The notes beneath the pieces were generated by a model that saw only the letters and a list, made by a program, of their open reading frames with translations, did not search any database and was not told the origin of the DNA. Made by a program: the position numbers and the translations under genes. From assembly GCA_022777585.1 (NCBI GenBank), contig JALFFZ010000079.1, positions 1 through 43,441 of the forward strand: a stretch of DNA of 43,441 nt. Direction: 5' to 3'. Source of the stretch: Bacteroidales bacterium (lineage in GTDB: Bacteria; Bacteroidota; Bacteroidia; Bacteroidales; UBA932). This document shows positions 19,546 to 41,069 of the stretch, piece by piece. How positions within the stretch are numbered: the stretch's first letter is position 1; each line of letters begins with the position of its first letter.

Positions 19546-20271
19546 ATGAAACTTGACCACAATTCATCAAAACCCCTGCACCAGCAGGCTGAGGAGATAT
19601 TGAGAGAGATGATTCATGAAGAAGAGTACCGCAACGGGAAGCTTCTTCCCAATGAGGTGGAATTGTCAAAGGAACTGAACATTTCGAGAAACACACTTCG
19701 GCAGGCCATCAACCGCCTGGTCTTCGAAGGACTTCTCATCCGCAAGAAGGGATACGGAACCTGTGTCGCACCGCAGGATGTGATGAGCAATGCGCGCAAC
19801 TGGATGAGTTTCACCCAGGAAATGGCGGCATTGGGGATGAAGGTGCAGAATTTCGAGCTGCATATCAGTTTCAAATCTGCCCCGAAGGAGGCTACCGACC
19901 TCTTCAACGTGCCTGAGGACAAGAAGTTGCTCTGCCTTGAACGGCTCAGGGGCAAGCCGGAGCTCCCGTTCGTATTCTTCATATCATATTTCAATCCGGC
20001 AATTCCGATGTCGGTGTCTGAGGACATGAGCAAGCCTCTTTATGACATTCTCAATAACAATTACGGAATCAAGGTCAAGACCTCCAAGGAACATATTTCA
20101 GCAAAGGCTGCCAATGCAGAGTTGGCTGAGAAACTCGGCATATTGGAAGGCGAACCCATTCTTGTCAGGAAGAGATTCGTCTATGATGTGAACAATGCCC
20201 CTATTGAATACAACATTGGATACTACCGTGCCGACTCATTCACCTATACGATTGAATGCACAAACGAATAA
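19546..20271 (+). CDS. GntR/HutC family regulator with UTRA sensor domain
   Basis: This 241-residue regulator has a winged-helix DNA-binding domain (about 5-75; PNEVELSKELNISRNTLRQAINRL, a classic GntR recognition helix) and a UTRA ligand-binding domain (about 95-238) that typically senses a sugar or sugar phosphate. Its gene lies in the middle of the mannoside locus, nine bases before the MFS transporter, and five copies of one palindrome lie at the promoters around it. The simplest reading is a local repressor released by mannose or mannose-6-phosphate. The ligand is inferred; the family and site spread are seen. Confidence 0.9.
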   Translation: MKLDHNSSKPLHQQAEEILREMIHEEEYRNGKLLPNEVELSKELNISRNTLRQAINRLVFEGLLIRKKGYGTCVAPQDVMSNARNWMSFTQEMAALGMKVQNFELHISFKSAPKEATDLFNVPEDKKLLCLERLRGKPELPFVFFISYFNPAIPMSVSEDMSKPLYDILNNNYGIKVKTSKEHISAKAANAELAEKLGILEGEPILVRKRFVYDVNNAPIEYNIGYYRADSFTYTIECTNE

Positions 20272-20280
20272 ACTAAAACT

Positions 20281-21435: not shown

Positions 21436-21466
21436 GGACAACTTCCCCTTCGTCTTTATCATAACT

Positions 21467-21520
21467 GCGGAATTAAAACCGCGATTTTATGCAAAATCGC
21501 GGTTTTAATTCCGCGTTTTT
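21467..21520 (+). terminator. 22-bp perfect palindrome, terminator-like
   Basis: Two perfect 22-base arms (21467-21488 and 21493-21514) flank a 4-base loop ATGC and are followed by GTTTTT. Each arm holds a smaller GCGG...CCGC inverted pair, so alternative hairpins are possible. It can end the gntR-MFS transcript. It is also unusually long for a terminator and lies 33 bases before the AAA ATPase start. Confidence 0.7.
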
Positions 21521-21547
21521 ATATATATTTGCAAAAATGAATTGAAT

Positions 21548-22723: not shown

Positions 22724-22956
22724 GGAATATGAAGAAATACGGGACAATCTCAAAACCAGACTCGAGGCTCACGCCGAATAATGAATAAGGACAATTGTAA
22801 AAGGCCGCAGGTATGATCCTACGGCCTTCAGCGTTCAGGAACATGAATTTATTGACTGCTTCAGTCTGAATAAGGACTTCAAAAAAGATAGGTTCTCAAA
22901 GAAGAAGTTCAGTTAGGTGGAAAGTATAGTTCAAGTTAGGTAAGCAGCAGGCATCG
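22724..22956. other. Intergenic region with hairpin and fragmentary coding remnants
   Basis: Directly after the ATPase stop, one frame reads EYEEIRDNLKTRLEAHAE and stops, with a helical protein-like composition. After the hairpin another reads EHEFIDCFSLNKDFKK up to a TAG at about 22,913. Neither has a start or a recognised family. They may be scraps of genes lost with the ATPase insertion. The short spans make chance reading possible. Confidence 0.3.
22801..22828. terminator. Hairpin between convergent ATPase and manA
   Basis: AAGGCCGCAGG pairs with CCTACGGCCTT across a 6-base loop with one mismatch. It lies between two converging genes and can act for either. A clear T-tract is absent on both sides. 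Confidence 0.5.
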
Positions 22957-24723
22957 TTATTTCATAAACGCTTTTATCATCATTATCCGTTCCCCGGAGT
23001 CATTCACAATCCTGTATGAACAGGCAGCAGCGGATATCACCAGAGACTCGGCATATGTAAGGTCGAATGTCATCCCGCCTTCAGTAATGATCTTTGCGGA
23101 CTTGCCCTCGACAAGATTGAGAGCGTGACATTTGCCTTCGGTCTTCACTTCCACCTCGGTATCAACCACATAGCGATGTACATCGTAGGAATGGTTGGCG
23201 TGTGTAGGAAGATGCCATAGCTCCCAGCCGTCACCCTCTTCAATAAGCGAAGGGTGGGAGACGAACTCCTCGGCAATGCGTTTGCCCTTTCGGTCGAAAT
23301 ACAGGTTCTCCATCGCTCTCCTGATGTTCAGCGGCCTCGGACGTCCATCCAGGTCGAGGGCCATCCAGTCGTACATCTTGAATGTGAAGATGTACGGAGT
23401 CGTGCTGATTTCCAGGACCAGGTTGTTGCGTCCCGAGCTGTGGAGGGTTCCCGGAGGAATCAGGTACAGACCGTGCTTCACGGCCGGTTCGGCATTGATG
23501 TACTTCGGGACGTCGAGCGGAGTGGCAGTCTCGTGGCTCCGTGTCAGGGCCGCCTCGAATTCTTCAGGGACAATGTCATCCTTGAATCCGAGATAGACCT
23601 CTGCACCCGACTTGTGGTCGAGGATATAGTAGGTTTCCTCCTGAGTGAGCACCTCTCCGAAGTTCTTCTGTATGTATTCCCTGCGCGGATGACATTGTAT
23701 TGAAAGATTGCCTCCGTCGAAATTGTCAAGATAGTCAAGACGGATCGGGAACTCGTCGCCATACTCGCGGTAGCAATCGTCTCCCACAACATCCCGGCCG
23801 GCCTCGTACATTATGGAATCGAACGAAAGCTCAAGCATCTTGTCACCGCCGCTGAGGATAATTCCGTTCTCCGGCACAATCAGTTCGAATGACCAGGCAT
23901 AGTTAGGTACATCCTGAGGAAGATCACCGATGAACTCCTTGATGCGCTGTCCTCCCCAGGCTCCCGGCTCGAACCATGGGCGTACCCTGAAACCGTTCCG
24001 GGCAAGCCTGTCCAGGCCGGCGCGGACCACATCGCCTTCCGCCCAGGTAATCTCCGTCTCGCGCTGGGCATCCACAAAAATGTCAATTTCAGGCATCAAT
24101 GCCTTCTTGTGCCTGTTGAGAACGACCCAATCAATGAAGTAGAAGCGCTTGTACATCTTCTTCGGAGCATCCGGGGCAGCCGCGCCGAGATTTCTCACGC
24201 TGCCCGCCCTCGAACGGAACTGTATCTCGTTCTTCGGGATATCCAGATAAATCAATGTCCCCTCCCATCCGGCGAGAGACGCACCGATCCCGTAAATGAT
24301 ATTGAGCGGTGCCGAAGCATCGGCCTTTATGGATGCAAGCTTGTCCCCATCAAAGAAATCCTTGAGTTCAAGGCTGGCCCTGTAACCGAAAATAGGGTCA
24401 TCACCGCCAAGGAACGGTTCTATCATCATATCTATCTCCGCAGGACTCTTCAAGGCCGAATCCACGCTCCACCAGAGGGCAGTCTTCCCGGCGGCCGAAA
24501 GCGCTTCGTTAAGGCTTGATACGAATTCATCAAACCTTACTCCGACATATCCGTCAATAATCACCGTTCCGCGTTCCGGAATCCGGGCGGCAAGTTCGCT
24601 GAAATCCGATGAGACAGTCCCGTCGCCGAGATCGTGGACCGGATATATGTCGTAGTCCATAGCTCCCGGCTTTTTCTTGCTCACCGGCATGAGATACTGA
24701 GTTGTCTTTCTGATTTTTGTCAT
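22957..24723 (-). CDS. manA: Class I mannose-6-phosphate isomerase with N-terminal extension
   Basis: This cytoplasmic enzyme interconverts mannose-6-phosphate and fructose-6-phosphate. I take the ATG at 24723 (588 residues); the TTG three codons earlier is less likely. The C-terminal part has the class I landmarks: PWFEPGAWGG near residue 260, a zinc-ligand QCH in SIQCHPRREY, and HGLYLIPPGTLHSSG. Residues about 1-230 are extra; they resemble a phosphotransferase-like P-loop domain in layout (IIDGYVGVRFDEF at the expected loop, then ALWWSVDSAL) but the lysine of Walker A is missing. The gene is nine bases after the ROK kinase, so both follow one transcript, and it links the locus to glycolysis. 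Confidence 0.88.
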   Translation of the reverse strand: MTKIRKTTQYLMPVSKKKPGAMDYDIYPVHDLGDGTVSSDFSELAARIPERGTVIIDGYVGVRFDEFVSSLNEALSAAGKTALWWSVDSALKSPAEIDMMIEPFLGGDDPIFGYRASLELKDFFDGDKLASIKADASAPLNIIYGIGASLAGWEGTLIYLDIPKNEIQFRSRAGSVRNLGAAAPDAPKKMYKRFYFIDWVVLNRHKKALMPEIDIFVDAQRETEITWAEGDVVRAGLDRLARNGFRVRPWFEPGAWGGQRIKEFIGDLPQDVPNYAWSFELIVPENGIILSGGDKMLELSFDSIMYEAGRDVVGDDCYREYGDEFPIRLDYLDNFDGGNLSIQCHPRREYIQKNFGEVLTQEETYYILDHKSGAEVYLGFKDDIVPEEFEAALTRSHETATPLDVPKYINAEPAVKHGLYLIPPGTLHSSGRNNLVLEISTTPYIFTFKMYDWMALDLDGRPRPLNIRRAMENLYFDRKGKRIAEEFVSHPSLIEEGDGWELWHLPTHANHSYDVHRYVVDTEVEVKTEGKCHALNLVEGKSAKIITEGGMTFDLTYAESLVISAAACSYRIVNDSGERIMMIKAFMK

Positions 24724-24732
24724 AACCGTCAA

Positions 24733-25623
24733 TTAAAGAAATAATGATGCAGCACCTATCATTGCCGCATTATCCAGCAAAGAAGATACTTTGACATCAA
24801 CAGGCATTCCGCAGCCTGCAAGCGTCCGTTCAAGAGAAGCGGAAAAAAGGTTGTATGCACGGGAAATATTGCCACCGAGCACTACTGACCTGGATCCGAA
24901 TGCAGATAACACCGGGAGCAGGAATTCCGCAAGCCTTGTTCCATACTCATCGAAGAGCTGCCTGGCAGCTTCGTCCTGAGCATATCTTTCAGCCACTTCC
25001 CTGGCCCCGGCGACTCTCTGCCCTGTCAGTTCCCCGTACCTTTTGACAATCCATCGGGTCGAGAATGCTTCATCTGCTATGGAATCCCCGAACGGCAGAC
25101 AGTAAACCCAACCGTTGTCAGGAACACCTTCGCCGGATGTGACCAGTTTGCCGTCATCCACGAATCCGGAGCCGACACCTGTCCCAAGAGTAAGAGCCAC
25201 CACCCTGTCAGCCCCTTTGGCAGCTCCGTGAAGAGCCTCGCCGAGAGCGAATGCCGATGCATCATTGACGAATCTCATCTGCACGTCGCCTGCCTCTGAA
25301 AACAGGACAGAACGCATTGTCTCAGCCACGTCGAGTCCATAAACGCTTTCATATTTCCCCACTCCGCTTATAAGGGATATGCCCCGGACATAGTCGAACG
25401 GCCCAGGAAAGGCAAATCCCACACGGCTGACCTTTCCCCCGAAGCCTGACATTGACCGTCTTACATTTTCCGCCCAGGCATTCACGACCTCCACGGCCCC
25501 GGCAGAGCTGTCAACCGGAGTGGTCACCGGTTCTGAACAGATACTGCCGTCTTCAATGTCAACTACAGCAGAACACACATGGGATCCACCGACATCGACA
25601 CCTATCACATAATTTTCCTTCAT
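24733..25623 (-). CDS. ROK family sugar kinase (probable mannokinase)
   Basis: The 296-residue kinase (ATG at 25623; an in-frame ATG at 25635 is also possible) has the ROK phosphate motif GVDVGGSH near the start, the catalytic aspartate in VNDASAFALGE, and LTLGTGVGSGF. The usual zinc motif CXCGXXGCXE of many ROK proteins is not seen. It would phosphorylate free mannose to give the substrate of the isomerase nine bases downstream. Mannose as substrate is inferred from that pairing. A perfect TATATTTG -7 box lies upstream (25678-25685), followed by an operator at 25653-25666. Confidence 0.87.
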   Translation of the reverse strand: MKENYVIGVDVGGSHVCSAVVDIEDGSICSEPVTTPVDSSAGAVEVVNAWAENVRRSMSGFGGKVSRVGFAFPGPFDYVRGISLISGVGKYESVYGLDVAETMRSVLFSEAGDVQMRFVNDASAFALGEALHGAAKGADRVVALTLGTGVGSGFVDDGKLVTSGEGVPDNGWVYCLPFGDSIADEAFSTRWIVKRYGELTGQRVAGAREVAERYAQDEAARQLFDEYGTRLAEFLLPVLSAFGSRSVVLGGNISRAYNLFSASLERTLAGCGMPVDVKVSSLLDNAAMIGAASLFL

Positions 25624-25652
25624 GATTACATTCATCTTTAAACAAAATCGAT

Positions 25653-25666
25653 GTATGTATGAACAT
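25653..25666 (-). promoter_or_regulatory. Predicted GntR operator ahead of ROK-manA
   Basis: GTATGTATGAACAT differs from the susC operator by a single base. It lies between the ROK promoter and start codon. Confidence 0.65.
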
Positions 25667-25677
25667 TCAACCCGACG

Positions 25678-25706
25678 CAAATATAAATAAATTTTTTGAT
25701 ATACAA
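25678..25706 (-). promoter_or_regulatory. ROK-manA promoter
   Basis: On the minus strand ATTG is followed after 18 bases by TATATTTG (25678-25685), an exact match to the Bacteroidetes -7 consensus TAnnTTTG. The spacing is slightly short. Confidence 0.6.
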
Positions 25707-25782
25707 TAGCAGATATATAAAAACGTTGCATTTATCGCTTTTGCAACCATTTATTCCACTTGCTTTATAACGGAATATTTGT

Positions 25783-25790
25783 TTACTTTG
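25783..25790 (+). promoter_or_regulatory. Candidate GH92 -7 promoter box
   Basis: TTACTTTG lies about 20 bases after a TTG and just before the operator at 25798-25811. It fits TAnnTTTG with one mismatch. Confidence 0.4.
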
Positions 25791-25797
25791 CGCAATA

Positions 25798-25811
25798 TTG
25801 TTTAAACATAC
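25798..25811 (+). promoter_or_regulatory. Predicted GntR operator ahead of GH92
   Basis: TTGTTTAAACATAC ends six bases before the GH92 start codon and directly follows its promoter. It is one base from the consensus TTGTTCAAACATAC. Confidence 0.65.
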
Positions 25812-25816
25812 GCAAA

Positions 25817-28800
25817 ATGACAAAAAAGATTCTATCAACTCTGTTTATTGCCACGACATTGGCGTCAGGTGCCTTTGCAAAGGATATAGCCACCCTGTGG
25901 ACAATAGGCGAAAAAGACGGCCGCAGTTCGGAGTTCGCCCTGGCTCCGGAAGGGTACAAGGATTTCATTGAACATGATTTCGGGTACGAGGACAAGTATT
26001 TCATCGCAGGATGGTCGGAAACCGACAAGGATTTCCCTTATGTTCTGCCGGGACCGGTGGATACCTGGGGAGGAACCTGGCGTACCTCGGGATGGAGGAC
26101 GCACGAGGTGAACATTCTGTTCTCATTGGCCGAAGAGCCCGGGAAGAATGAGGAATTCAGGCTCGACCTCGACCTCGCGGATTTCGCGAAGACTTTCCTT
26201 CCTCTCGTAAAAATCACGGTGAACGGAGAAATTGTGCAGAAAACGCAGCTCGAAGCAGAGGGATTCGATGTCAGGAAACAGAGGCATCCGAACCGCAATG
26301 AGAAGATAAAGGACGAATCCAGCCTGAAGAGCGACAGCGAGAATGCCACGCCTGCAGAAATCAGCCTCCCCCTGAAGGGAAGCGCTCTGCACAAAGGCGG
26401 CAACCGGGTGAACATAACCATCCTCGAGGGCTCATGGATCAAGTTCGACAGGGTGGCTCTCAGCGGTCCGAAAGGGACCCGGACGACAAGGCCGGGAAAT
26501 GTATTCATAAGAAGCATCCGGCCGGCCGGTTATGAGATTGAAAAGGACGGAAGGAGATTCCAGCCTCTTCTCGTGGATCTGGAGCATCTCGGCGGAGAGC
26601 CGGTGCTCAGCATTGAGGTCGATGGCAAGACGGTGATGGAGAAGAAGATAGAGAAAGGAAGATATTGTCTGGAGGCTCCGATGCCGGCGACTGCCAAATG
26701 CAGGAAAGGCAGATATGAGGTGAAATGCGACGGCAATGTCATCGCAGACGGAACCGTAAGGAGAAGTCCTGAAAAGCTCCAGACACCTGCCGACTATGTG
26801 GATACGAGAATCGGCACAGCACACTCCAGATGGATGATAGCTCCGGGCCCGTGGATGCCTTTCAGCATGGTAAAGATGAGTCCGGACAATCAGAACGCCG
26901 GATGGATGGCAGGATACCAGCCTTCATTCGAGAGCATCGGATGTTTCAGTCACATTCACGAATGGACGCTCGGTGGACTCGGAATAATGGCCTCCAACGG
27001 AGAACTCAAGACCAGGGTAGGCGATGAACTCAAGCCTGACGAGGGTTACAGGTCAAGGATTGACAAGAGGACGGAAACCGCAGGAATCGGCCTGTACAGC
27101 GCTGACCTTTCGGATTACGGCATCAAGGCTGAAGTCTCGGCCACGACACGTTGCGGTTTCACAAGGTTCACATTCCCGGAGGACAGAGGCGACGGGCGCG
27201 TCATCATCGAACTCCATCCTCAGGCAGAATACAATTTCTTCCTGAAGGATATTGACGTGAAGAAAGTATCCGACACACGCATCGAAGGATATGTTCACCA
27301 GTTCTCCCCGGGTGTATGGAGCAAGGATGCAGATCAGGACTACACAGTGCATTTCGTCGTGGAATTCGACAGGCCGATGAAGAGCCTCGGCTCATGGCGC
27401 GGGAATGAGGTGAAGGAGGATGTTGACGGATTGAAGAGCGGAGAATGCAGGGAGGCCGGACTGTTCGCATCCTTCGACCCGAAAGATGGAGCTGTAGTCA
27501 ATGTGCGCACGGCCATTTCCCCGGTCAGCGTCAGGAACGCATCGGAAAATCTAGAGAAAGAACTGGCGGGTCCTTTCGGATGGTCTCTGGATGCAGTTGT
27601 CAGAAATCAGCAGGATGTCTGGAACGACATTTTCTCAAGGCTGACAATCAGCACTGATGACAGGCTGGAGAAAGTCCGCTTCTACAACAATATGTACCGC
27701 GCCATCTGCAGCCGCAACATCTGGAGCGACTGCAATGGAGAATGGATTTCCACTGACGGCAAGCTCCGCCGCGTAGCTGACCCGGAAAATGATGTAATGA
27801 TCGGCTGCGACGCCTTCTGGAATACATTCTGGAACCTCAACCAGTTCTGGAATCTTGTGACGCCTGAATGGAGCGGCAGATGGGTGCGCTCACAGCTCGA
27901 AATGTACAAGGCCAACGGATGGCTTGCAAAGGGTCCTGCCGGACTGAACTACATCCCGGTAATGGTAGGCGAGCACGAAATTCCGATGATAGTCGGCGCA
28001 TACCAGATGGGCATCAGGGATTTCGATGCAAGACTTGCGCTCGAGGCTGCCGTCAAGATGCAGACTACACCGGCCAGGAAGGTATTCAAAGGCTTCGCCG
28101 GCAACAGGGATCTCGCTACTTATTTGGAACACGGCTATGTGCCGTGCGACAAGGGCCGTTTTTCCAACACTATGGAATATTCCTTCGATGACTGGACAGT
28201 CGGCCAGCTGGCAAAGGCTCTCGGCGACGAGGAGACCTATCTCAAATTCAACGAAAGAGGATACTGGTGGAAGAATGCAATCAGCGATGACGGATATTGC
28301 CATATGAAGGACAGCAATGGAGAATGGGTGAAGGACTTCGACCCGTTCCGCAGCGGCGCCAGCCGTCATTATGTGGAGGGCAATGCCTGGCAGCTGACAT
28401 TCTTTGTTCCGCAGGATGTTCCTGCCCTCGTCGAAAAAATCGGCAGGGAAAGATTCTGCGAGAGACTTCTCTGGGGATTCAATCAGGATGAGGCATTCCG
28501 CTACAATGCCCCTAATGACCAGTACTGGGATCACCCTGTAGTCCATGGCAACCAGCAGTCAATGCATTTCGCATATCTGTTCAACTATGCCGGCCAGCCT
28601 TGGAATACACAGAGATGGAGCAGGTCGATTCTGGAGCGCTACTACGGCTACGGAGAGGCCAATGCCTACCTCGGCGATGAAGATCAGGGCCAGATGAGCG
28701 CCTGGGCGATAATGACTTCCATCGGCCTTTTCCAGACTGACGGAGGCTGCCGCATCGATCCTGTCTATGAAATTGCAAGTCCGGCATTCGAGGAGATTGA

Positions 28801-28993
28801 AATCAATCTCGGAGGCCGATACGGCCGCGGTGACAAGTTCGTGATCAAGGCCCGCAATGCATCCAGGAAGAACATCTACGTTCAGAGCGCCGTTCTCAAC
28901 GGCCAAAGACTTGACGGATTCACGTTCCCGGCTTCGGAGCTGCTGAAGGGAGGAGAGCTCGTGCTTGAGATGGGGCCGGAGCCCAAGAAATAA
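25817..28993 (+). CDS. GH92 family exo-alpha-mannosidase, secreted
   Basis: The 1,058-residue enzyme (ATG at 25817, start of MTKKILSTLFIATTL, a clear signal peptide) should release terminal alpha-mannose in a calcium-dependent, inverting way typical of GH92. Residues about 23-215 and 220-330 are two beta modules shared with the GH38 enzyme. The GH92 part starts at ADYVDTRIGTAHSRWM. Family active-site segments are intact: YVEGNAWQLTFFVPQD with E854 at the acid position and GDEDQGQMSAW with D954 and D956 at the base position. It is divergent from ROK-manA and has its own operator. A bidirectional terminator follows. It is the only intact GH92 here and may replace the dead copy at 18,514. Confidence 0.95.
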   Translation: MTKKILSTLFIATTLASGAFAKDIATLWTIGEKDGRSSEFALAPEGYKDFIEHDFGYEDKYFIAGWSETDKDFPYVLPGPVDTWGGTWRTSGWRTHEVNILFSLAEEPGKNEEFRLDLDLADFAKTFLPLVKITVNGEIVQKTQLEAEGFDVRKQRHPNRNEKIKDESSLKSDSENATPAEISLPLKGSALHKGGNRVNITILEGSWIKFDRVALSGPKGTRTTRPGNVFIRSIRPAGYEIEKDGRRFQPLLVDLEHLGGEPVLSIEVDGKTVMEKKIEKGRYCLEAPMPATAKCRKGRYEVKCDGNVIADGTVRRSPEKLQTPADYVDTRIGTAHSRWMIAPGPWMPFSMVKMSPDNQNAGWMAGYQPSFESIGCFSHIHEWTLGGLGIMASNGELKTRVGDELKPDEGYRSRIDKRTETAGIGLYSADLSDYGIKAEVSATTRCGFTRFTFPEDRGDGRVIIELHPQAEYNFFLKDIDVKKVSDTRIEGYVHQFSPGVWSKDADQDYTVHFVVEFDRPMKSLGSWRGNEVKEDVDGLKSGECREAGLFASFDPKDGAVVNVRTAISPVSVRNASENLEKELAGPFGWSLDAVVRNQQDVWNDIFSRLTISTDDRLEKVRFYNNMYRAICSRNIWSDCNGEWISTDGKLRRVADPENDVMIGCDAFWNTFWNLNQFWNLVTPEWSGRWVRSQLEMYKANGWLAKGPAGLNYIPVMVGEHEIPMIVGAYQMGIRDFDARLALEAAVKMQTTPARKVFKGFAGNRDLATYLEHGYVPCDKGRFSNTMEYSFDDWTVGQLAKALGDEETYLKFNERGYWWKNAISDDGYCHMKDSNGEWVKDFDPFRSGASRHYVEGNAWQLTFFVPQDVPALVEKIGRERFCERLLWGFNQDEAFRYNAPNDQYWDHPVVHGNQQSMHFAYLFNYAGQPWNTQRWSRSILERYYGYGEANAYLGDEDQGQMSAWAIMTSIGLFQTDGGCRIDPVYEIASPAFEEIEINLGGRYGRGDKFVIKARNASRKNIYVQSAVLNGQRLDGFTFPASELLKGGELVLEMGPEPKK

Positions 28994-32224: not shown

Positions 32225-32256
32225 GTTTCAATATAGGAAAATTTAACCTATTTTTG
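32225..32256 (+). promoter_or_regulatory. Promoter of the surface lipoprotein operon
   Basis: TATTTTTG at 32249-32256 exactly fits TAnnTTTG. A TTTC, one base off TTTG, lies 20 bases before it. Transcription would start about 12 bases before the ATG at 32276. Confidence 0.6.
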
Positions 32257-32275: not shown

Positions 32276-34069
32276 ATGGAAAAAGTATATTCAATATTAT
32301 CAACCGCATTGGCCGTTGTAACCATAGCTACGGTTACTCCTGCCTGCACCGGAATAGAGACGGAAAGGCGGAGCGAAGGCCCGGTAAGGGTGGCCTTCAC
32401 CACAACACAGCCCGGAACCAAAGCCGAACTGGATCCTTCCGCCGGCAGGTTCACCTGGGAAACAGGGGACAAGGTCGCAGTGTGGGCCGACAATCAGTCC
32501 GGAAGCCCTGTCCTCGAGGCCAGAGAGTTCACCCTTCTTGCACGAGACAATTACGACAAAGGATATTTCACATCCACATTGGACACCCCGATGGAGGAGG
32601 ATACCTATAATTATTATATAGCATTCCCGCTTCCTTCATCATTTTCCGGAAAAAATGCAGTCTTCAACCTCCCGTCCAGACAGGACGGAAAGGCCTCCGG
32701 AGCCTGCATTGCAATCTCCGATGCCATAGAGGCAGGGGCACTCAGGGAATTTGACGAGCAGAGGCCCGTTTCAGAGACCATAAGCCTCGACCTCAGGCTC
32801 AGACATCTCCTGCACTATCTCAGATTCTACATCCCGCAGGGAGAGAATGCGTTGAACGAACCCATAACCTCATTGGAGTTCTCAATGCCGCAGGGCATAG
32901 CCGGAACGGTGAATGTCAACATGGCGGACGGCAGCGCAACCCTCACCGATGCACAGACATCCGTCACACTTGCCCCGGAAGAGGCAGTACAGGACGGAGA
33001 GTTCATTTCCTCGTCCATATTCCCGCCACAGAGGACATACGTCAATGACGAGTTCCTGAATGTCAGGGTATTCTCCGAGAACTGGTACTCCGATATCGAG
33101 CCAATCAGGCTGGAAGGCAGGGATTTCCAGGCAGGGCACATCACCACGGTACCGCTCAGGGCGAAGACCGTATCCCCTGTCTATAATCTCACATTCACCC
33201 TTATCTCCAACAATCTCGGGCAGGAGGTAAAGAACCTCACATTCACTTTCGACAACGAAGTTACCTGGGGAGGAGAGAGATGGACATCCTTCTCATACGC
33301 CGACCCGGACGGCTCCACCTTCATACCGGGCGAGAAAATCGTACTCAAGACATTGGACGAGAGCGAGTTCTGGGCCCTCTCCGGCACAGGGTTGACAGTA
33401 AGTTACGAGAGCGAAGACGCCATCGTCAGCGAAAAAATCACATTCCCGGACATGGCATCCTCAAATTCCGTCAATGTGGCCCTGAACTGCCCTTACCTGA
33501 TGTTCGAGGACTTCAGCTGCATCCAGAGCAGTTTCAACAGCGGAGACAAGCACTCTGCTTCAAACACAGGCAACAAGAGTCCATACTACATCGAGAGCGG
33601 CTGGAGCGTAGCCCGGGCAGGAGGAGAGGCAGGTACAGCGATCAGACTTGCCGCCCACAGGGAAGCTGTGGCCTGCTATCATTCAAGATGCGACTCCCCA
33701 CTTCTGTCCGGAATCAAAGAAGGGCACACCGTAAATATCTCATTGACATTTAATTATTCGATGAACAGACAGGAAGGAGGTATCGGATCCAAGCCAAAGC
33801 TGGGCGCAACCGTCAATGTCGGATGGACTACAGATACCGGCAACCTCTCAAGCGGAAACGAAACGGGAACATTCCCTGATTCCTTCTATGTAAATGAGGA
33901 GACAGGCTCATATTCAGAAATCGGCAACGAGCACAGTACCCAGCTTGACGGCATAACCAACGCAATGCGCCTGTCAATAAGAGAGTTGGCTGAAACAAAG
34001 GCAGATATGACCAATGGCACCTACTGGCTCTACCTCGACAACATAAAAGTATCGATAGCAAATAACTAA
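32276..34069 (+). CDS. Fimbrillin-like lipoprotein with C-terminal jelly-roll-like domain
   Basis: The 597-residue lipoprotein has a lipobox ending at C24. Residues about 35-300 look like a fimbrillin/Mfa-type N-terminal domain: FTTTQPGTKAELDPSAGRFTWETGDKVAVW is a typical opening, followed by the paired beta domains. Residues about 300-400 are unassigned beta. Residues about 405-597 start LMFEDFSCIQSSF and end in LYLDNIKVSIAN, which resembles jelly-roll carbohydrate-binding domains. It is the first gene of a seven-gene operon of surface proteins. No pilus usher or anchor protein is seen, so a fimbria is not shown; an adhesive or glycan-binding surface protein is the cautious reading. Confidence 0.7.
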   Translation: MEKVYSILSTALAVVTIATVTPACTGIETERRSEGPVRVAFTTTQPGTKAELDPSAGRFTWETGDKVAVWADNQSGSPVLEAREFTLLARDNYDKGYFTSTLDTPMEEDTYNYYIAFPLPSSFSGKNAVFNLPSRQDGKASGACIAISDAIEAGALREFDEQRPVSETISLDLRLRHLLHYLRFYIPQGENALNEPITSLEFSMPQGIAGTVNVNMADGSATLTDAQTSVTLAPEEAVQDGEFISSSIFPPQRTYVNDEFLNVRVFSENWYSDIEPIRLEGRDFQAGHITTVPLRAKTVSPVYNLTFTLISNNLGQEVKNLTFTFDNEVTWGGERWTSFSYADPDGSTFIPGEKIVLKTLDESEFWALSGTGLTVSYESEDAIVSEKITFPDMASSNSVNVALNCPYLMFEDFSCIQSSFNSGDKHSASNTGNKSPYYIESGWSVARAGGEAGTAIRLAAHREAVACYHSRCDSPLLSGIKEGHTVNISLTFNYSMNRQEGGIGSKPKLGATVNVGWTTDTGNLSSGNETGTFPDSFYVNEETGSYSEIGNEHSTQLDGITNAMRLSIRELAETKADMTNGTYWLYLDNIKVSIANN

Positions 34070-34082
34070 CATAAAAAACATC

Positions 34083-34811
34083 ATGCGTATTAAAACTATG
34101 TCTGCAGCCTTGGCCGCATTGACCATCCTGGCAGCCTGCTCCAAGCAGAGCGGTTCGGAAGGCAATGTACGCATCGCCCTGGAGCAGCAATCCAAGCTCG
34201 TTGACGTCTCCACCAAATCTTCCGTAGGGGACTTTACAACTCTTCCTTCGGCATCAGCATTCACAGTGAAGATCAGCGACGCCCAGGACAACATCACGCC
34301 AGTGACCGACCTCTCGGCCCCTGTTACTCTTACGACTGGAAACTATATCGCATCAGCCACTTACGGCAGCCTCTCGGACGAAGGATTCGACAAGCCTTGT
34401 TTCAAGGGAGAGCAGAGTTTCTCTGTAAACGGCAGCGGTTCACAGACAGTCACCATCAAGGTAAAGCTTGCCGGCTGCATCGTGAAATTCAGCTTCACCG
34501 AAGCATTCACCAACTATTTCAGCGACTACAGCTTCACCGTCACCACTGGCGGCGGAACCGAGATTTCCGTTCCGAAGAGCGAGACCCGCGCCATCTTCAT
34601 GGATGCGTACACATTCAGGCTCAGCGGTACACTTACCAGCCAGAGCGGAGCCACCCAGACTTTCGCAGAGAAGGAGTTCAAGAACCTTGAGCCGGCAACC
34701 TGCTACACGGTCAAGTTCGACGCCTCCAATGTAGGTTCAAATTCCATAACCATCTCCTTTGACGAGACCACCATCGACACGGACCTCGTAGAAGTGGATT
34801 TAAATGACTGA
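34083..34811 (+). CDS. DUF4493-like lipoprotein (small)
   Basis: The 242-residue lipoprotein has a lipobox ending at C19. The rest is beta-rich with the DUF4493 pattern: a Y-ASATYG turn, a SFSVNGSGSQTVTI segment, then KLAGCIVKFSFTEAF and a closing FKNLEPATCYTVKFDAS. Function is unknown; the family occurs only with surface lipoprotein operons in Bacteroidetes. It sits 13 bases behind the fimbrillin-like gene and its stop overlaps a possible start of the next gene. Confidence 0.7.
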   Translation: MRIKTMSAALAALTILAACSKQSGSEGNVRIALEQQSKLVDVSTKSSVGDFTTLPSASAFTVKISDAQDNITPVTDLSAPVTLTTGNYIASATYGSLSDEGFDKPCFKGEQSFSVNGSGSQTVTIKVKLAGCIVKFSFTEAFTNYFSDYSFTVTTGGGTEISVPKSETRAIFMDAYTFRLSGTLTSQSGATQTFAEKEFKNLEPATCYTVKFDASNVGSNSITISFDETTIDTDLVEVDLND

Positions 34812-34815
34812 TATT

Positions 34816-36057
34816 ATGAAACTTAGGAAAATATTCACATTGTCACTTGCCGCACTCGCCCTTGCAGGCTGCGCCGATGATAAATTCGCTTTCGACAAGA
34901 ACGGAGAGGGAAAAGGAACACTCTCATTTGCAGGTCTCAGCATTGACTACTCCGAGGAGATGGTCACAAGGGCCGAGGCTGCGGACGGAACCTATATGCT
35001 CTATGTCTATGACTCAGGCGAGTCCCTCGTATGGTCAGGTCAATATTCCACCATCCTGGAGGGTACCGGAAGCATTTCCCTGCTCGCCGGAGACTACAGA
35101 ATCAACGTCCGTTCCACATCTGCGGCTGTACCTGACGCCAAGTTCTCATCTCCTGTCTATGGGGCATCGCAGACCTTCACAATCACGGCCGGAGAGACCA
35201 CGACACTGGGGACAATCACCTGCACCCTTCTCCAGTGCGCCGTCTCGGTGGAGTACAATGACGACTTCCTCTCATTGGTGACGGGCGACGGAAATACCAG
35301 CGTGGAAGTAACAGCGGGCTCCCCTCTCGACTATGTGCTCAGCTACAATTCGGGCACTCCGAAATACGAGAGGCGCATCGGCTACTTCGCTGTAAACGGA
35401 AACAATACGACAATGGTTGTCACCTTCAAGGGAAGCATTGAGAACAAGACCCAGAAGATGACCACCACGATTACCAATCTCAAGCCTCGCGACTACCACA
35501 TCGTCAAGTTCATGAAGAAGGTTGACGCCACAGGCTCCGTGACAATCGGCATTGAAATAGACGGTCTCGTGGCAGATGCCACACTCGACAATGACATCGA
35601 GGCTTCCGAGCAGGGTGACGGCAATGACCCGGAGGCTCCTGCCGGAGACGGCGGAATCCGTCTCGTATCTACCTGCGACTATGATATCACACAGCCGATT
35701 ACAGTACCTGCATCAGGCAATCCTTTCGACCTTACTCTCCAGGCCGTAGTTCCTAACGGAGTTCTCCGCTTCACAGTGGACATCGCTTCCACCAACGAGG
35801 ACTTCATCAACTCCGTCAACACCGTGGGAGGAACCAACCTTGACCTCATCAATCCTTCCGAGGAAGCAATGGGCGTATTCGACATCGTGCCATTCCCTCA
35901 CGGAGCGGAGCTCGCAGGACAGACATTAGTGGACTTCGACCTCTCTGGCGCCCAGACCGCAATTCTCGGCTTCCCTGGCAGCCACACATTCAGGATGAAT
36001 GTTGTGGACACGAAGGGTTGCAGGAACAGCATTGACGTAATATTCATTGTCGAATAA
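34816..36057 (+). CDS. DUF4493-type lipoprotein
   Basis: The 413-residue lipoprotein (ATG at 34816, which begins the signal peptide MKLRKIFTLSLAALALAGC; an earlier ATG at 34804 overlaps the previous gene) has a lipobox ending at C19 followed by ADD, which could serve as a surface-export signal. The first 220 residues follow the DUF4493 pattern (SLLAGDYRINVRS, QTFTITAGETTTLGTITC, TNLKPRDYHIVKFM). The remaining 170 hold another beta domain (FDLTLQAVVPNGVLRFTVDI). Function unknown. Confidence 0.75.
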   Translation: MKLRKIFTLSLAALALAGCADDKFAFDKNGEGKGTLSFAGLSIDYSEEMVTRAEAADGTYMLYVYDSGESLVWSGQYSTILEGTGSISLLAGDYRINVRSTSAAVPDAKFSSPVYGASQTFTITAGETTTLGTITCTLLQCAVSVEYNDDFLSLVTGDGNTSVEVTAGSPLDYVLSYNSGTPKYERRIGYFAVNGNNTTMVVTFKGSIENKTQKMTTTITNLKPRDYHIVKFMKKVDATGSVTIGIEIDGLVADATLDNDIEASEQGDGNDPEAPAGDGGIRLVSTCDYDITQPITVPASGNPFDLTLQAVVPNGVLRFTVDIASTNEDFINSVNTVGGTNLDLINPSEEAMGVFDIVPFPHGAELAGQTLVDFDLSGAQTAILGFPGSHTFRMNVVDTKGCRNSIDVIFIVE

Positions 36058-36074
36058 GAAGAGGAGGGAAGAAA

Positions 36075-37892
36075 ATGAAAAAGACATTTGCACTTATCAC
36101 AATAGCTGCGGCGGCCCTCTTGTCCTGCCAGAAGCAGCAGACCACACCTGAAGGGGAAGGTGCCCTCATACTCTCGGTCAGCACTGGTGAGACCAGGGCG
36201 GCAATGACATCTGACGAACTTCTCGCCAATGCAGACATCCGCATATACAAGGATGACTTCTCCGGAATGGTACGCCACTACAAGTATTCCGAGCTTCCGC
36301 AGAGAATCTATCTGCCGTCAGGAGGATACAGAATCGACGTGGTTGCCGGTGAGGCTGCGAAGGAGACCCCTTCATACGCATCCTGGGAGCAGAAAAGTTA
36401 CAAGGGAAGCAAGGCAGTCACCATCACAGCCGGAGGCTCCGAGAACATCACGGTGGTGGCCGCAATGAACAGCATCGTATCGAACATTTCATTTGACAGC
36501 ACGATAGACAGCTATTTCCAGGCAGGTTATTCCTGTTCTGTAAGTCTCTCCACAGTGGAGGGGGCAAGTCTCTCGTACAGCAAGTCCCAGAGCGGAACGG
36601 ACGGATATTTCATCGCATCCGGATTCGAGCCATCCCTCGACTGGACATTCAGCGGAACCCTCACAAGCGGCGAGTCCTTCACCAAGAGCGGACGGATTCA
36701 GAACGTAGAGGGAGGAAAGCGCTACAAACTCCTCCTCAAATACGTGGAAAAGAACGGCCTCCTCGATGTTGAAATTCTCGTGGACGACACCCTCAATGAG
36801 GTTTACGACGACATTATCTTCGTTCCGGTATCAACAGGGCTCGCATCTACCGGAAAATATGAGGTCTGGGGAACCAAGTTCACCGCATACGCCGACGTGG
36901 ACGAGAATGAATATGACCGGACCAAGGTTTACTTCGAGTACAGGGTTGCTGGAAGCGATGGCGCGTGGAGCCGCTCGGTGGCTGCCACAAGGATCAGCGA
37001 AGGCTCATACTCTGCCCTGATCAACGGCCTGGCCGGAGAGACTGAATACGAGTACCGCCTCGTAGTGACCAAAGCCGCTGACGGAAGCGAGGAAATCGTG
37101 GATGGCACCAAGACTGTCACCACTGAGGCAACCCCTCAGGTACCGAACAGCAGTTTCGAGACTGTCAGTCACGCCGAGAGCAGCAACTACTACTCATTCT
37201 ATGACCCTGCCTCATCCGACCCTGCTCTCCAGAGCAAGTGGTGGTGCAGCGGAAACAAGGGCTCTACAACAGTAGGTTCTTCCTACCAGATTACATACCC
37301 TGACACCGGAGACAAGCAGGACGGAAACCAGTCAGTATGTCTGGAGTCAAGATATGTAATTGTAAAGTTCGCTGCAGGAAACCTGTTCTGCGGGCGGTTC
37401 GGAGCCACAATCGGAACAAGCGGCGGTACTGTCTATTTCGGACGTCCATTCACAGCCCGCCCTACCGCAATGCGTTTCTGGGCCAAGTATTCATCCGGAA
37501 AGATAAACCGTGTCGGCAACGGCCCTGCGGGAGTCCAGTCAGGTGACTATGACAAGGCCTCCCTGCGAATCGCCCTCGGCACCTGGGATTACAAGAAGTA
37601 TGGCGGCGATGCAAACAGCCCTATTCTCGTGAACACCACGGACGAAAGCACATTCATGGATTACGCCACGGACGAGTCAACCATAGCCTTCGGAGAGAGG
37701 ATTCTGACAGCCGATGCGGATAACAGCACCAACGTATGGCAGCAGATTACCATTCCTCTGGACTACAAGACCACAACCGAATATCCTACACATATCATGA
37801 TTGCCTTTGCGGCAAGCATGTACGGTGACTACTTCACAGGTTGTGACTCCAGCAAGCTGTGGCTTGACAAGATAGAACTTCTCTACGAATAA
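36075..37892 (+). CDS. DUF4493-fn3-PCMD domain lipoprotein
   Basis: The 605-residue lipoprotein has a lipobox ending at C18. Domains in order: DUF4493 (about 25-255), a fibronectin-III-like domain (about 265-355, ending ETEYEYRLVV), and the PCMD domain (putative carbohydrate metabolism domain, about 357-605) starting VPNSSFETVS and including SKWWCSGNKGSTTVG and a final DYFTGCDSSKLWLDKIELLYE-like strand. The last two domains are repeated in the gene at 39,436. PCMD proteins are thought to bind or process glycans; this is weakly supported in general. Confidence 0.8.
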   Translation: MKKTFALITIAAAALLSCQKQQTTPEGEGALILSVSTGETRAAMTSDELLANADIRIYKDDFSGMVRHYKYSELPQRIYLPSGGYRIDVVAGEAAKETPSYASWEQKSYKGSKAVTITAGGSENITVVAAMNSIVSNISFDSTIDSYFQAGYSCSVSLSTVEGASLSYSKSQSGTDGYFIASGFEPSLDWTFSGTLTSGESFTKSGRIQNVEGGKRYKLLLKYVEKNGLLDVEILVDDTLNEVYDDIIFVPVSTGLASTGKYEVWGTKFTAYADVDENEYDRTKVYFEYRVAGSDGAWSRSVAATRISEGSYSALINGLAGETEYEYRLVVTKAADGSEEIVDGTKTVTTEATPQVPNSSFETVSHAESSNYYSFYDPASSDPALQSKWWCSGNKGSTTVGSSYQITYPDTGDKQDGNQSVCLESRYVIVKFAAGNLFCGRFGATIGTSGGTVYFGRPFTARPTAMRFWAKYSSGKINRVGNGPAGVQSGDYDKASLRIALGTWDYKKYGGDANSPILVNTTDESTFMDYATDESTIAFGERILTADADNSTNVWQQITIPLDYKTTTEYPTHIMIAFAASMYGDYFTGCDSSKLWLDKIELLYE

Positions 37893-37896
37893 GTTT

Positions 37897-38643
37897 ATGC
37901 GCGGAAATACTCTACTAAAAGCGGTGCTCAGTATCATAACGCTGACCCTTGCCCTTGGGGCAGGGGCTCAGCGTTATGACAGAGGCTATAACCTGTCAAA
38001 TTCAGGCAGCTTCGTGAAAAAGGGCACCTGGATGGCCGGAGGGACAGCCAGCTATTCATTCCACGACAACGAGGACTACAACCTCCTTATCATCGAGGAC
38101 ATCAACTCCACGGGTTATGGAGTCAATGTCAGTCCCGCATTCTGCTATATGGTAAGGAACAATATGGGAATCGGCATGAGGGTGGAGTACGGCCGCAACA
38201 TGCTCAAGCTCGACGACGCTCACGTCGATATCGAGGACGTTTCGATGGATGTGAAGGACTATCACTGGATCAAGCAGATGGTAAATGCCAAATTCATCCT
38301 CAGGAACTACATTCCACTCGGTGATTCGAAGCGCTTCGCAATGTTCACGGAGTCCCAGCTCTCGTTCGGTTACGGACAGGCGAAGGTGGTAAACGGCAAC
38401 CTGGAGTATCCGAAGGGAGCATACGACAACATTACCAACCTCAGCGTGAACCTCTGTCCCGGACTCATGGCTTTTGCAGACGAGCATTTCGCCATCGAAC
38501 TGAGTGTCAAGATGCTCGGCCTGAGCATAAGCCACGTCGAGCAGACCAAGAATCAGGTTTACTACGGCAGCCGCAACTCCACATCGATCAATTTCAAGAT
38601 CAACGTGCTCACAGTAGGTGTCGGAATATATTATTATCTTTAG
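37897..38643 (+). CDS. Outer-membrane beta-barrel protein A
   Basis: The 248-residue protein has a cleavable signal peptide (AGAQ cut near residue 24) and alternating hydrophobic strands that end in an aromatic stretch (VGVGIYYYL), all marks of an outer-membrane barrel of about 8-10 strands. It shares layout with the next gene: a GxGxxxSYSFxD strand, SPAFCYMVRNNMGIGMR and NLSVNLCPGLMAF. The pair looks like a duplicated gene. Start is four bases after the previous stop, so translation is coupled. Function unknown. Confidence 0.7.
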   Translation: MRGNTLLKAVLSIITLTLALGAGAQRYDRGYNLSNSGSFVKKGTWMAGGTASYSFHDNEDYNLLIIEDINSTGYGVNVSPAFCYMVRNNMGIGMRVEYGRNMLKLDDAHVDIEDVSMDVKDYHWIKQMVNAKFILRNYIPLGDSKRFAMFTESQLSFGYGQAKVVNGNLEYPKGAYDNITNLSVNLCPGLMAFADEHFAIELSVKMLGLSISHVEQTKNQVYYGSRNSTSINFKINVLTVGVGIYYYL

Positions 38644-38646
38644 CCT

Positions 38647-39432
38647 ATGAGGAAGATTATAGCAATATTCATCGCACTTCTCCCGCTCGTGACAGATATG
38701 TCGGCAAGGGACCGCAACAGGGAACCGCGGGTAATGGGAGTACCTATGAGCGTCAAGGATACAAGTTCCAACGGCAGGAGACTGGCCCAGAGGCTGTTCA
38801 TCAGCAAGGGAGAAGTCGGCCTTGGAATATCCTTCTCCTATCTTGACATTGACAGCAATGACAGCGACTACCTCATGCTGCTTCAGAACTGCAACGCCTA
38901 CGCGAAGACTTTCAGCGTGATACCGACTGTCTCCTACGCCATAAAGGACAACAAAATCATCGGAATGCGTTTCAAGTATTCCACCTCATCGGGCAATATC
39001 TCCGAAGCTGACCTGAGCCTTTTGAGCGAGGATCTGACATTGAATGTAAGCAAGATCAGGGCAAACGGAGACACCTACCAGACGGCAGTCTTCTACAGGG
39101 CCTACCTCGGGCTCGACAGCCACGGGCGCTTCGGGCTTTTCAATGACGTCCAGCTTGCCTATACCCACGGCAGGACAACATTCTCCTACGGGGATACGGG
39201 TCTCAATGCCTACAACCTCTCGGACAAGGTCAACCTGAGCCTGCATCCGGGCCTTGAAGTATTCGCAATGAACAATATAAGCCTCAGTGTCAGCCTCGGC
39301 TTCGGAGGCCTGAGATACACAAACATCAGATGTATGGAAGATGGCCATATCACCGGCAGGAGAATAGCAGGAAACGCCCGTTTCTACATGGATGTCACTG
39401 ACATACGCATAGGTCTCACAATCCACATCTAA
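38647..39432 (+). CDS. Outer-membrane beta-barrel protein B
   Basis: The 261-residue protein is a diverged relative of the previous gene: FSVIPTVSYAIKDNKIIGMRFKY and KVNLSLHPGLEVFAMNNISLSVSLG match the corresponding segments of protein A. It has a signal peptide and a terminal strand (TDIRIGLTIHI). It starts three bases after protein A and ends three bases before the next gene. Confidence 0.7.
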   Translation: MRKIIAIFIALLPLVTDMSARDRNREPRVMGVPMSVKDTSSNGRRLAQRLFISKGEVGLGISFSYLDIDSNDSDYLMLLQNCNAYAKTFSVIPTVSYAIKDNKIIGMRFKYSTSSGNISEADLSLLSEDLTLNVSKIRANGDTYQTAVFYRAYLGLDSHGRFGLFNDVQLAYTHGRTTFSYGDTGLNAYNLSDKVNLSLHPGLEVFAMNNISLSVSLGFGGLRYTNIRCMEDGHITGRRIAGNARFYMDVTDIRIGLTIHI

Positions 39433-39435
39433 AGT

Positions 39436-41037
39436 ATGAGAAAATTCATTTCAATCCTGTCAGCAGCTGCGGTCATTGTATCCTGCATCCACAATGACCT
39501 GCCCTACCCTGTCATTGAGGCGTCAATCACATCATTGGAGGTGGAGGGAGCAAGTTCAGTGGAAATCAACAGTCTTAGGCAGATTATCACCATAACGCTC
39601 GAGGAGACCACGGACATCAGGAATGTACAGGTCAAGAACATTGGGTTCAACACCCCTGAGGTGAAGCCTTCCTGGAACATCTGCGGCTTCCGCGACCTCA
39701 GCAAACCGCTGAAGCTCACGCTCACCACATACGGTGACTATGAATGGACAATAGAGGCGAAGCAGCCAATAGAACGCTGGTTTTCAATGTCTTATCAGGT
39801 CGGGGAAAGCGCAGTTGACTATGAGAACAAAAGAGTTGTGGTCAAAGTCGCCGCTACGGCCGATGTGGCAAATCTTTCCATAACAAGCTGCAAGCTCGGG
39901 CCAAAGGACATAACCACCTATACTCCGGACCCTTCCACCATCAGGGATTTCAGCGAGGAACAGACAATACAGGTCGCCTACCATAGCGTCAGGGAGGAGT
40001 GGAAGATTTTTGTGGAGAGAAGTTCGACAACTGTCAGATTCCTGAAACTCGACCCTTGGACCAGAATCGCCTGGCTTACCGCCGAGGGAATTGCCGGCAA
40101 TGACAATGGATTCAGGCTGAGGGAGTCAGGCACGGAGGAATGGCAGGCAATCAGTCCAAGCTCCGAGACCGGAGGCAAGTTCACCGCAAGTGCGGACGGG
40201 CTGAAGCCTGAGACAACCTACGAATGCAAGGCGTTCAGCGGAAACGAGGAAACCGAGATTCAGACATTCACGACAGAGGATGAAAGACAGTTGCCTAACG
40301 CAGGCTTCGAGACCTGGTCCAATGCTGAATCCGACAAATACTACTCGTTCTTCGATCCTGCATCTCCGGATCCTGAGCTGCAGACCAAGTGGTGGGGCAG
40401 CGGAAACAAGGGCTCGACTACAGTGGGTGCCAGCCATACCATTACAATGCCTTGCACCGATGATGCAGTGGAGGGAAAGAGTTCCCTGCTCATGGCATCA
40501 GACTATGTGGTCATCAAATTCGCGGCAGGAAACGTATTCTCCGGGGAATACTACAAGACCATTGGAACCAGCGGCGGTGTCATCCGCATGGGAAGGCCGT
40601 TCACACACAGGCCTCAGAAACTCACGGCCTGGATCAGGTACAGGGCAGGAGTCATCACCGACAAGACATTCGGGGACAAGCCTGACAATGACCCTGTGAA
40701 GGTCGGAGACCGCGACAGAGGAAGCATCTGGGTGGCTCTCGGTGACTGGGACTACCACAAATACGGCGGCTCGGAGGAATCCCCTGTGGAGCTCAACACT
40801 ACCGACAAGAGCACGTTCTTCGACCCTAAGGGCGAGAATGTCATAGCATACGGCAATTTCGTGGCTGACAGGGACTATGACCAGTGGACGAAGGTGGAAG
40901 TGCCTCTTGAGTACGTGACAACGTCCAAGAAGCCTACCCATATCATTGTATCCTGCGCATCGAGTATGCTGGGTGACTATTTCACCGGCAGTGCAGACTC
41001 AAGGATGTGGATAGACGATATCCGGCTGGAATATTGA
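39436..41037 (+). CDS. Ig-fn3-PCMD domain lipoprotein
   Basis: The 533-residue lipoprotein has a lipobox ending at C17. The N-terminal 200 residues are two beta domains of DUF5018-like appearance (YPVIEASITSLEVEGASS and YGDYEWTIEAKQPIERWF). A fn3-like domain follows (about 205-275), then a PCMD domain (about 280-533) with LPNAGFETWS, TKWWGSGNKGSTTVG and DYFTGSADSRMWIDDIRLEY. The fn3-PCMD half closely matches the protein at 36,075. It is the last gene of the operon and a terminator follows six bases later. Confidence 0.8.
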   Translation: MRKFISILSAAAVIVSCIHNDLPYPVIEASITSLEVEGASSVEINSLRQIITITLEETTDIRNVQVKNIGFNTPEVKPSWNICGFRDLSKPLKLTLTTYGDYEWTIEAKQPIERWFSMSYQVGESAVDYENKRVVVKVAATADVANLSITSCKLGPKDITTYTPDPSTIRDFSEEQTIQVAYHSVREEWKIFVERSSTTVRFLKLDPWTRIAWLTAEGIAGNDNGFRLRESGTEEWQAISPSSETGGKFTASADGLKPETTYECKAFSGNEETEIQTFTTEDERQLPNAGFETWSNAESDKYYSFFDPASPDPELQTKWWGSGNKGSTTVGASHTITMPCTDDAVEGKSSLLMASDYVVIKFAAGNVFSGEYYKTIGTSGGVIRMGRPFTHRPQKLTAWIRYRAGVITDKTFGDKPDNDPVKVGDRDRGSIWVALGDWDYHKYGGSEESPVELNTTDKSTFFDPKGENVIAYGNFVADRDYDQWTKVEVPLEYVTTSKKPTHIIVSCASSMLGDYFTGSADSRMWIDDIRLEY

Positions 41038-41042
41038 CGCAG

Positions 41043-41069
41043 AAAGGGTGGCTCACGGGCCACCCTTTT
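41043..41069. terminator. Terminator after the surface operon and metG
   Basis: AAAGGGTGGC and GCCACCCTTT form a 10-bp stem with a 6-base loop and a short T run on the plus strand. It lies between the converging surface operon and metG and may serve both. Confidence 0.8.

What the first reader, a model, noticed from the sequence alone, without database searches (positions are those of the whole stretch)
32276..41037. Seven-gene surface operon of fimbrillin-like, DUF4493, barrel and PCMD proteins
All seven genes run the same way with spacings of about 3-17 bases behind one good promoter. Five are lipoproteins and two are barrels, and no catalytic or transport gene is included. This may be a surface assembly with its own outer-membrane export pair, but no described system matches that I know of.
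Basis: partly seen in the sequence, partly recalled or inferred. Interest (0 to 1): 0.52.

Follow-up and report, generated by a model that had tools for sequence, protein, structure and literature searches.

The report
Bacteroidales pilin-lectin surface operon with barrels
A seven-gene operon, kept together across many families of gut Bacteroidales, encodes pilin-like surface lipoproteins joined to sugar-binding-like domains plus a dedicated outer-membrane barrel and a lipid-anchored partner; it is probably an undescribed adhesive, glycan-binding surface structure related to type V pili.

Summary
The operon is real and conserved. Seven co-directional genes (32276-41037) encode five lipoproteins and two paralogous outer-membrane barrels. 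In 200 genomes of the host family the barrel and the PCMD lipoprotein ORF7 occur in exactly the same 47 genomes. They are adjacent in essentially every intact locus across Bacteroidales. Usually three DUF4493 lipoproteins precede them in fixed order.

DUF4493 has no solved homologue by sequence, but its AlphaFold model best matches type V pilins and anchors (Mfa2, BT0320). ORF1-4 carry a Thr-Lys/Arg-Ala/Ser site about 25-30 residues after the lipidated Cys, where type V prepilins are cleaved. ORF7 lacks it, as anchors do. PCMD domains keep the BT2081 aromatic pocket but not its proposed catalytic Asp259/Arg290, so they look like binders. The barrels resemble OmpA/OmpW and match no Pfam/NCBIfam family above threshold; as exporters they look too narrow.

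Best reading: a type-V-pilus-like adhesive assembly, with ORF1/ORF4 as lectin-bearing tip-type subunits, ORF2/ORF3 as linkers, and ORF7 plus barrel(s) as the membrane base. No description was found in the held library. Filament formation and ligand are untested.

The parts
32226..32256 (+). Bacteroides-type promoter (TTTC-N19-TATTTTTG), about 20 nt before the first ATG
   Evidence: sequence; only TAnnTTTG on + strand from 31813 to the window end
32276..34069 (+). ORF1, lipoprotein, fimbrillin-like N domain (Mfa_like_1, aa 60-297) plus unclassified C-terminal domain; tip-type adhesin candidate
   Evidence: Pfam 28.2 bits vs 27; 8-member alignment; most divergent gene in some locus pairs
32417..32425 (+). 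ORF1 T48-K49-A50, candidate prepilin cleavage site
   Evidence: motif survey
34083..34811 (+). ORF2, lipoprotein, single DUF4493 domain; pilin-like stalk/linker candidate
   Evidence: Pfam E 1e-36; AF2 pLDDT 82.8 and Foldseek to type V pilins
34212..34220 (+). ORF2 T44-K45-S46, in the low-confidence loop after the first strand
34804..36057 (+). ORF3, lipoprotein, DUF4493 plus conserved C-terminal domain of unknown type
   Evidence: Pfam E 2e-31; 34-member alignment
34966..34974 (+). ORF3 T55-R56-A57, candidate cleavage site
36075..37892 (+). ORF4, lipoprotein, DUF4493 + Fn3-like + PCMD jelly roll; lectin-bearing pilin-like subunit
   Evidence: Pfam E 3e-37 and 7e-37; PDB relatives 4jrl, 3hbz, 4het, 3s30
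36192..36200 (+). ORF4 T40-R41-A42, candidate cleavage site
37897..38643 (+). ORF5, outer-membrane barrel 1
   Evidence: AF2 pLDDT 85.3; Foldseek OmpA/Ail/OmpW; no Pfam/NCBIfam family above threshold
38647..39432 (+). ORF6, outer-membrane barrel 2, paralogue of ORF5
   Evidence: 24% identity over 207 aa
39436..41037 (+). ORF7, lipoprotein with CIxND-PYP start, DUF5018/BT1761-like N region, Fn3-like and PCMD; candidate anchor or base lectin, without the cleavage motif
   Evidence: Pfam PCMD E 3e-39; weak DUF5018 and PDB 8a9y/8aa0/8aa2; no motif
40306..41028 (+). PCMD domain of ORF7; BT2081 aromatic pocket kept, Asp259 and Arg290 lost
41043..41068 (.). Perfect 10-bp inverted repeat, terminator between ORF7 and metG

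Best explanation
The operon makes a type-V-pilus-like, glycan-binding surface structure. Shown here: gene set and order, lipoprotein signals, conservation, predicted folds, the prepilin-type site, loss of the proposed catalytic residues. Inferred: ORF1-4 reach the surface as lipoproteins; a surface clostripain-type protease cuts after Lys/Arg in the loop behind the first strand; removal of that strand opens a groove that takes a strand from the next subunit, giving a short fibre or complex. ORF1 and ORF4 carry C-terminal ligand-binding domains like type V tip pilins; ORF2 and ORF3 are linkers or stalk. ORF7, a lipoprotein without the cut site, stays lipid-anchored and together with barrel(s) ORF5/6 forms the outer-membrane base. 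The barrel/ORF7 pair is the irreducible core and also occurs alone.
For: Barrel and ORF7 in the same 47 of 200 family genomes (hypergeometric P about 1e-46). Barrel directly before ORF7 in 46/47, 76/80 and 29/31 loci; most exceptions are truncated contigs or an over-long start call. DUF4493 genes beside them in 39/47, 45/80, 25/31. DUF4493 model: 20 of 34 PDB hits at E<=1e-3 are type V pilin/anchor-type Bacteroidetes structures, including P. gingivalis Mfa2 (5nfi). T[KR][ASTG] at +18..+40 after the lipid Cys in 45 of 79 clusters (35% identity) of DUF4493/M1 proteins, near zero elsewhere in the N-terminal 200 aa, against 1 of 14 ORF7 clusters. The window's sites (K49, K45, R56, R41) lie where Mfa1/3/4 are cut (R49, R43, R54), and anchor Mfa2 has no site (PMC5789003). 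[quoted passage not shown] The genome has a clostripain-family C11 gene, an Mfa2 gene and a DUF3575 barrel beside another Mfa2-like gene. PCMD pocket kept, proposed catalytic Asp259/Arg290 not conserved in 38 ORF7s.
Against: TM-scores of the DUF4493 model to type V pilins are only 0.42-0.47, and sequence profile comparison to Mfa2 is weak (39%; a control driven by the signal peptide gave 35%). No member of the known anchor family Mfa2 is in the operon. No repeated major subunit is obvious; it may be a compact complex, not a fibre. The C-terminal strand of ORF2 is modelled with low confidence. The barrel's role as a base is inferred from linkage only. The M1/DUF4493 survey counts relatives, so the clusters are not fully independent.
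Confidence: 0.5

Rival explanations
1. A non-polymeric surface glycan-binding complex: independent lectin lipoproteins clustered around a barrel, comparable with the surface glycan-binding proteins of PULs, but without uptake.
For: ORF7 N region resembles BT1761 of the levan utilisome; PCMD is PUL-associated (PMC2954218); PCMD is often the slowest-changing part; the barrel/ORF7 pair stands alone in many loci.
Against: No SusC/SusD or enzyme in the operon or its conserved neighbourhood; does not explain the pilin-like fold and site in ORF1-4.
Confidence: 0.28
2. The barrels are a dedicated export or secretion pair for the lipoproteins.
For: Constant adjacency of barrel and lipoprotein; FapF, a secretion barrel, is among the structural hits.
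Against: Model is a narrow OmpA/Ail/OmpW-like barrel, TM to FapF 0.25-0.33; often a single barrel; lipoproteins of this order use a general route (PMC12632263).
Confidence: 0.08
3. Small-molecule or oligosaccharide uptake: barrel as a channel fed by lectins.
For: Weak matches of single barrel members to Toluene_X and OmpG-type porin models; glycan-binding partners.
Against: No TonB-dependent transporter, periplasmic enzyme or regulator in the operon; the OmpG-type match of ORF5 is below its curated cut-off.
Confidence: 0.1

Closest known systems
Type V pili (FimA-E / Mfa1-5 of Porphyromonas gingivalis; Bacteroides Mfa/Fim pilins)
   Same: Lipoprotein precursors, Lys/Arg site in the loop after strand 1 at the same distance, one lipoprotein without the site, C-terminal ligand-binding domains, fimbrillin-like ORF1, pilin-like predicted DUF4493 fold
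   Different: DUF4493 in place of FimA/Mfa1 families; no Mfa2 anchor; Fn3-PCMD modules; one or two barrels of a new family as constant partners; filament not demonstrated
BT2081 and the PCMD family (PDB 3hbz, 4jrl, 4het, 3s30)
   Same: C-terminal PCMD jelly roll with conserved aromatic pocket, Asp338 and the C-terminal Ca ligand (Asp351)
   Different: Asp259/Arg290 not conserved in ORF7s; fused to DUF4493 or to the ORF7-specific N region; no SusC partner
DUF3575 barrels near type V fimbrial genes (BT4227, BT4233-36; this genome C156)
   Same: Small outer-membrane barrel in a fimbrial locus
   Different: Barrel families not detectably related (hhalign 5.7%); here directly coupled to a PCMD lipoprotein
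BT1761 surface glycan-binding protein of the levan utilisome (8a9y, 8aa0, 8aa2)
   Same: About 77 aligned residues of the ORF7 N region (E about 3e-8)
   Different: No PCMD match there; belongs to a SusCD transporter complex (own knowledge)

Membership tests
Type V pilus | Subunits made as lipoprotein precursors | tested here: met
   Lipobox in ORF1-4 and ORF7
Type V pilus | Type V pilin fold of the subunits | tested here: inconclusive
   Foldseek E down to 1.6e-6, prob 1.0, 20 of 34 best hits are this fold, but TM 0.42-0.47; ORF1 Mfa_like_1 just over cut-off
Type V pilus | Arg/Lys protease site in the loop after strand 1 | tested here: met
   45/79 clusters with a sharp positional peak, ORF7 1/14; cleavage itself not testable
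Type V pilus | Maturation protease in the genome | tested here: met
   Peptidase_C11 at C28; C25 not found, but that search rang nowhere
Type V pilus | Mfa2/FimB-family anchor in the operon | tested here: not met
   No PF08842 match in ORF1-7; only 2 of 34 ORF3 relatives weakly
Type V pilus | Donor-strand polymer visible as a filament | not testable with these tools
   Needs microscopy and biochemistry
PCMD family | PF13201 above curated cut-off | tested here: met
   ORF4 127.8 and ORF7 135.6 bits vs 28
PCMD family as glycoside hydrolase | Asp259 and Arg290 of BT2081 | tested here: not met
   Ser and Asn in ORF7; mostly Gln/His and Glu/Lys in 38 ORF7s
Polysaccharide utilisation locus | SusC/SusD pair and enzymes in the operon | tested here: not met
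   None in ORF1-7 or the conserved neighbourhood
Outer-membrane protein exporter | Wide barrel or known exporter family | tested here: not met
   OmpA/OmpW-like model; no Pfam family over cut-off for ORF5

The most novel reading that the evidence does not exclude
A new class of Bacteroidales surface organelle: pilin-like lectin subunits mounted on a dedicated barrel-lipoprotein base, with the barrel/PCMD-lipoprotein pair as a portable, order-wide platform that accepts different adhesins, the leading subunit being swapped between lineages.
Probability: 0.3. Interest if true: 0.75.

Novelty: new variant of a known kind. Interest (0 to 1): 0.56.

Why it matters
It gives a coherent, testable role to three widespread unnamed or 'unknown function' families (DUF4493, PCMD, the new barrel family) in gut Bacteroidales, and predicts a protease-matured lectin structure that may decide what these bacteria stick to. 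If the barrel is a pilus base, it would also bear on how type V pili and surface lipoproteins are held at the outer membrane, which is open.

Tried and rejected
Phase-variable promoter: no inverted repeats flank the promoter. Structured RNA: none. Sequence relatives of the barrel, ORF1 or its C-terminal domain in PDB: none. C-terminal domain of ORF1 as a diverged PCMD: no profile support. Sequence proof of DUF4493 = Mfa2: weak, with a signal-peptide control nearly as high. Barrel = DUF3575: not supported. Gingipain C25 in the genome: not found, but the search rang in no control. Hidden pilin-like genes upstream of the short barrel/ORF7 loci: the first residues of the upstream genes examined look mostly like unrelated housekeeping or metabolic proteins (read by eye, no family search). 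Outside Bacteroidales: no ORF7 N-region hits in a 396-genome phylum sample except in that order.
Full report
Observation. Five have lipoprotein signals, two are predicted barrels. Pfam gives Mfa_like_1 (ORF1, marginal), DUF4493 (ORF2, 3, 4), PCMD (ORF4, 7) and nothing over threshold for the barrels. A Bacteroides-type promoter precedes ORF1 and a stem-loop follows ORF7. The block lies between rplM/rpsI and metG, both on the other strand (metG and rpsI by reading the translation).

Conservation. In 200 genomes of the same family the barrel (ORF5) occurs in 47 and strong hits to the ORF7 N region occur in exactly the same 47. Gene maps of 47 family loci, 80 loci from the GTDB collection found through ORF7, and 31 loci from an order-wide barrel search show the barrel directly upstream of ORF7 in 46, 76 and 29; nearly all exceptions are contig ends or an over-long start call, with L137 the one clear exception. 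DUF4493 genes stand beside them in 39, 45 and 25 of these loci, most often three. The common order is [ORF1-ORF2 or one DUF4493-Fn3-PCMD gene] - DUF4493+C domain - DUF4493-Fn3-PCMD - barrel (- barrel) - ORF7. The window's fimbrillin-like ORF1 with ORF2 is the rarer form (7 of 47). Flanking genes differ between genera, so this is not simple synteny. Loci without DUF4493 have apparently unrelated genes upstream. Named carriers of the longer form include Bacteroides fragilis Q1F2, Odoribacter lunatus and Barnesiella sp.. A phylum sample gave ORF7 hits only within Bacteroidales. DUF4493 and PCMD domains also occur singly: DUF4493 hits are in 134 of 200 family genomes, so those two domains alone are not diagnostic.

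DUF4493 as a pilin-like fold. A 93-sequence alignment gave a model of ORF2 with mean pLDDT 82.8. Of 34 PDB matches at E<=0.001, 20 are Bacteroidetes fimbrillin/Mfa2-type adhesion proteins, among them P. gingivalis Mfa2 (5nfi). TM-scores of 0.42-0.47 make this fold-level, not close. The first strand (26-35) is followed by a low-confidence loop (40-47) that holds T44-K45-S46. Across 283 DUF4493/M1 proteins the motif T[KR][ASTG] peaks 20-39 residues after the lipid Cys: 160 of 283 proteins, 45 of 79 clusters at 35% identity; ORF7 relatives have it in 8 of 134 and 1 of 14 (a first count is). In P. gingivalis, Mfa1, Mfa3 and Mfa4 are cut after Arg49, Arg43 and Arg54 in the loop after strand 1, and anchor Mfa2 is not cut (PMC5789003). 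In gut Bacteroidales the protease is reported as the surface clostripain, and tip pilins typically bear C-terminal ligand-binding domains (PMC12632263). The window's genome encodes a clostripain-family C11 peptidase and Mfa2 genes elsewhere.

PCMD and ORF7. The PCMD domains match BT2081 and three other solved structures. BT2081 has a deep putative sugar pocket with Asp259/Arg290 proposed for catalysis (PMC2954218). In 38 ORF7s the aromatic platform, Asn200, Asp338 and Phe340 positions are kept, but Asp259 is mostly Gln or His and Arg290 varies. This favours binding over hydrolysis. The N region of ORF7 is weakly related to DUF5018 and to BT1761 of the levan utilisome (the name BT1761 for the 8a9y chain is own knowledge).

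Barrels. ORF5 models with pLDDT 85 as an up-and-down barrel nearest OmpA, Ail and OmpW. ORF6 is a paralogue. Such barrels are usually too narrow to move folded proteins (established knowledge), so I reject the export-pair idea and prefer a membrane base or partner for ORF7; that role is inference from linkage. A DUF3575 barrel beside an Mfa2-like gene on another contig of this genome, and DUF3575 genes near a fimbrillin gene in B. thetaiotaomicron (PMC10434189), are precedents for barrels in fimbrial loci, though the families are not detectably related.

Evolution. In several locus pairs the leading gene, or its C-terminal domain, is far more divergent than the rest: L132/L148 ORF1 21-23% against 62-82% elsewhere, L062/L063 leading PCMD region 36% against 70-95%. 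This fits a swapped tip adhesin but rests on few pairs. PCMD of ORF4 and ORF7 is often the most conserved part.

Verdict. The surface-assembly idea holds and becomes more specific: a type-V-pilus-like, lectin-bearing structure with a barrel/ORF7 base. It works like type V pili in its inferred logic but is not filed as a member, because the Mfa2 anchor is missing and the filament is unproven. No paper in the held library names DUF4493 or these Pfam accessions; subscription papers could not be searched.

Noticed in passing
7200-18334 and 19546-28993: Mannoside/N-glycan-type polysaccharide utilisation locus: GH38, two lipoproteins (DUF4998 + laminin G; DUF4959/5126/5000), SusD, SusC, GntR-UTRA regulator, MFS, ROK, GH92 with CBM-like domain.
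   Followed up: partly
18823-19463: Fragment of a GH92 catalytic domain in short ORFs (match at 18823-19161), probably a decayed gene.
   Followed up: no
162-5630: Type I restriction-modification-like genes: HSDR_N fused to N6 methylase, a Methylase_S gene, and a small ORF with a weak Abi_alpha match.
   Followed up: no
6067-6729: 220-aa ORF matching only the start of DUF5054, likely a truncated gene.
   Followed up: no
22957-24732: 591-aa protein with no Pfam match at E<=0.05, beside a ROK gene in the mannoside locus.
   Followed up: no
L212:617-3661 (G000:C156): Mfa2-like gene next to a DUF3575 barrel and a 526-aa protein without Pfam match, a possible further type V locus with a barrel.
   Followed up: partly
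L085:7272-8351 (G000:C116): Lone DUF4493 + DUF6359 lipoprotein carrying the same T-K-A site; single DUF4493 genes like it are common in the family.
   Followed up: partly
L079, L080: Second DUF4493/PCMD cluster without barrel or ORF7 in genomes G006 and G180.
   Followed up: no
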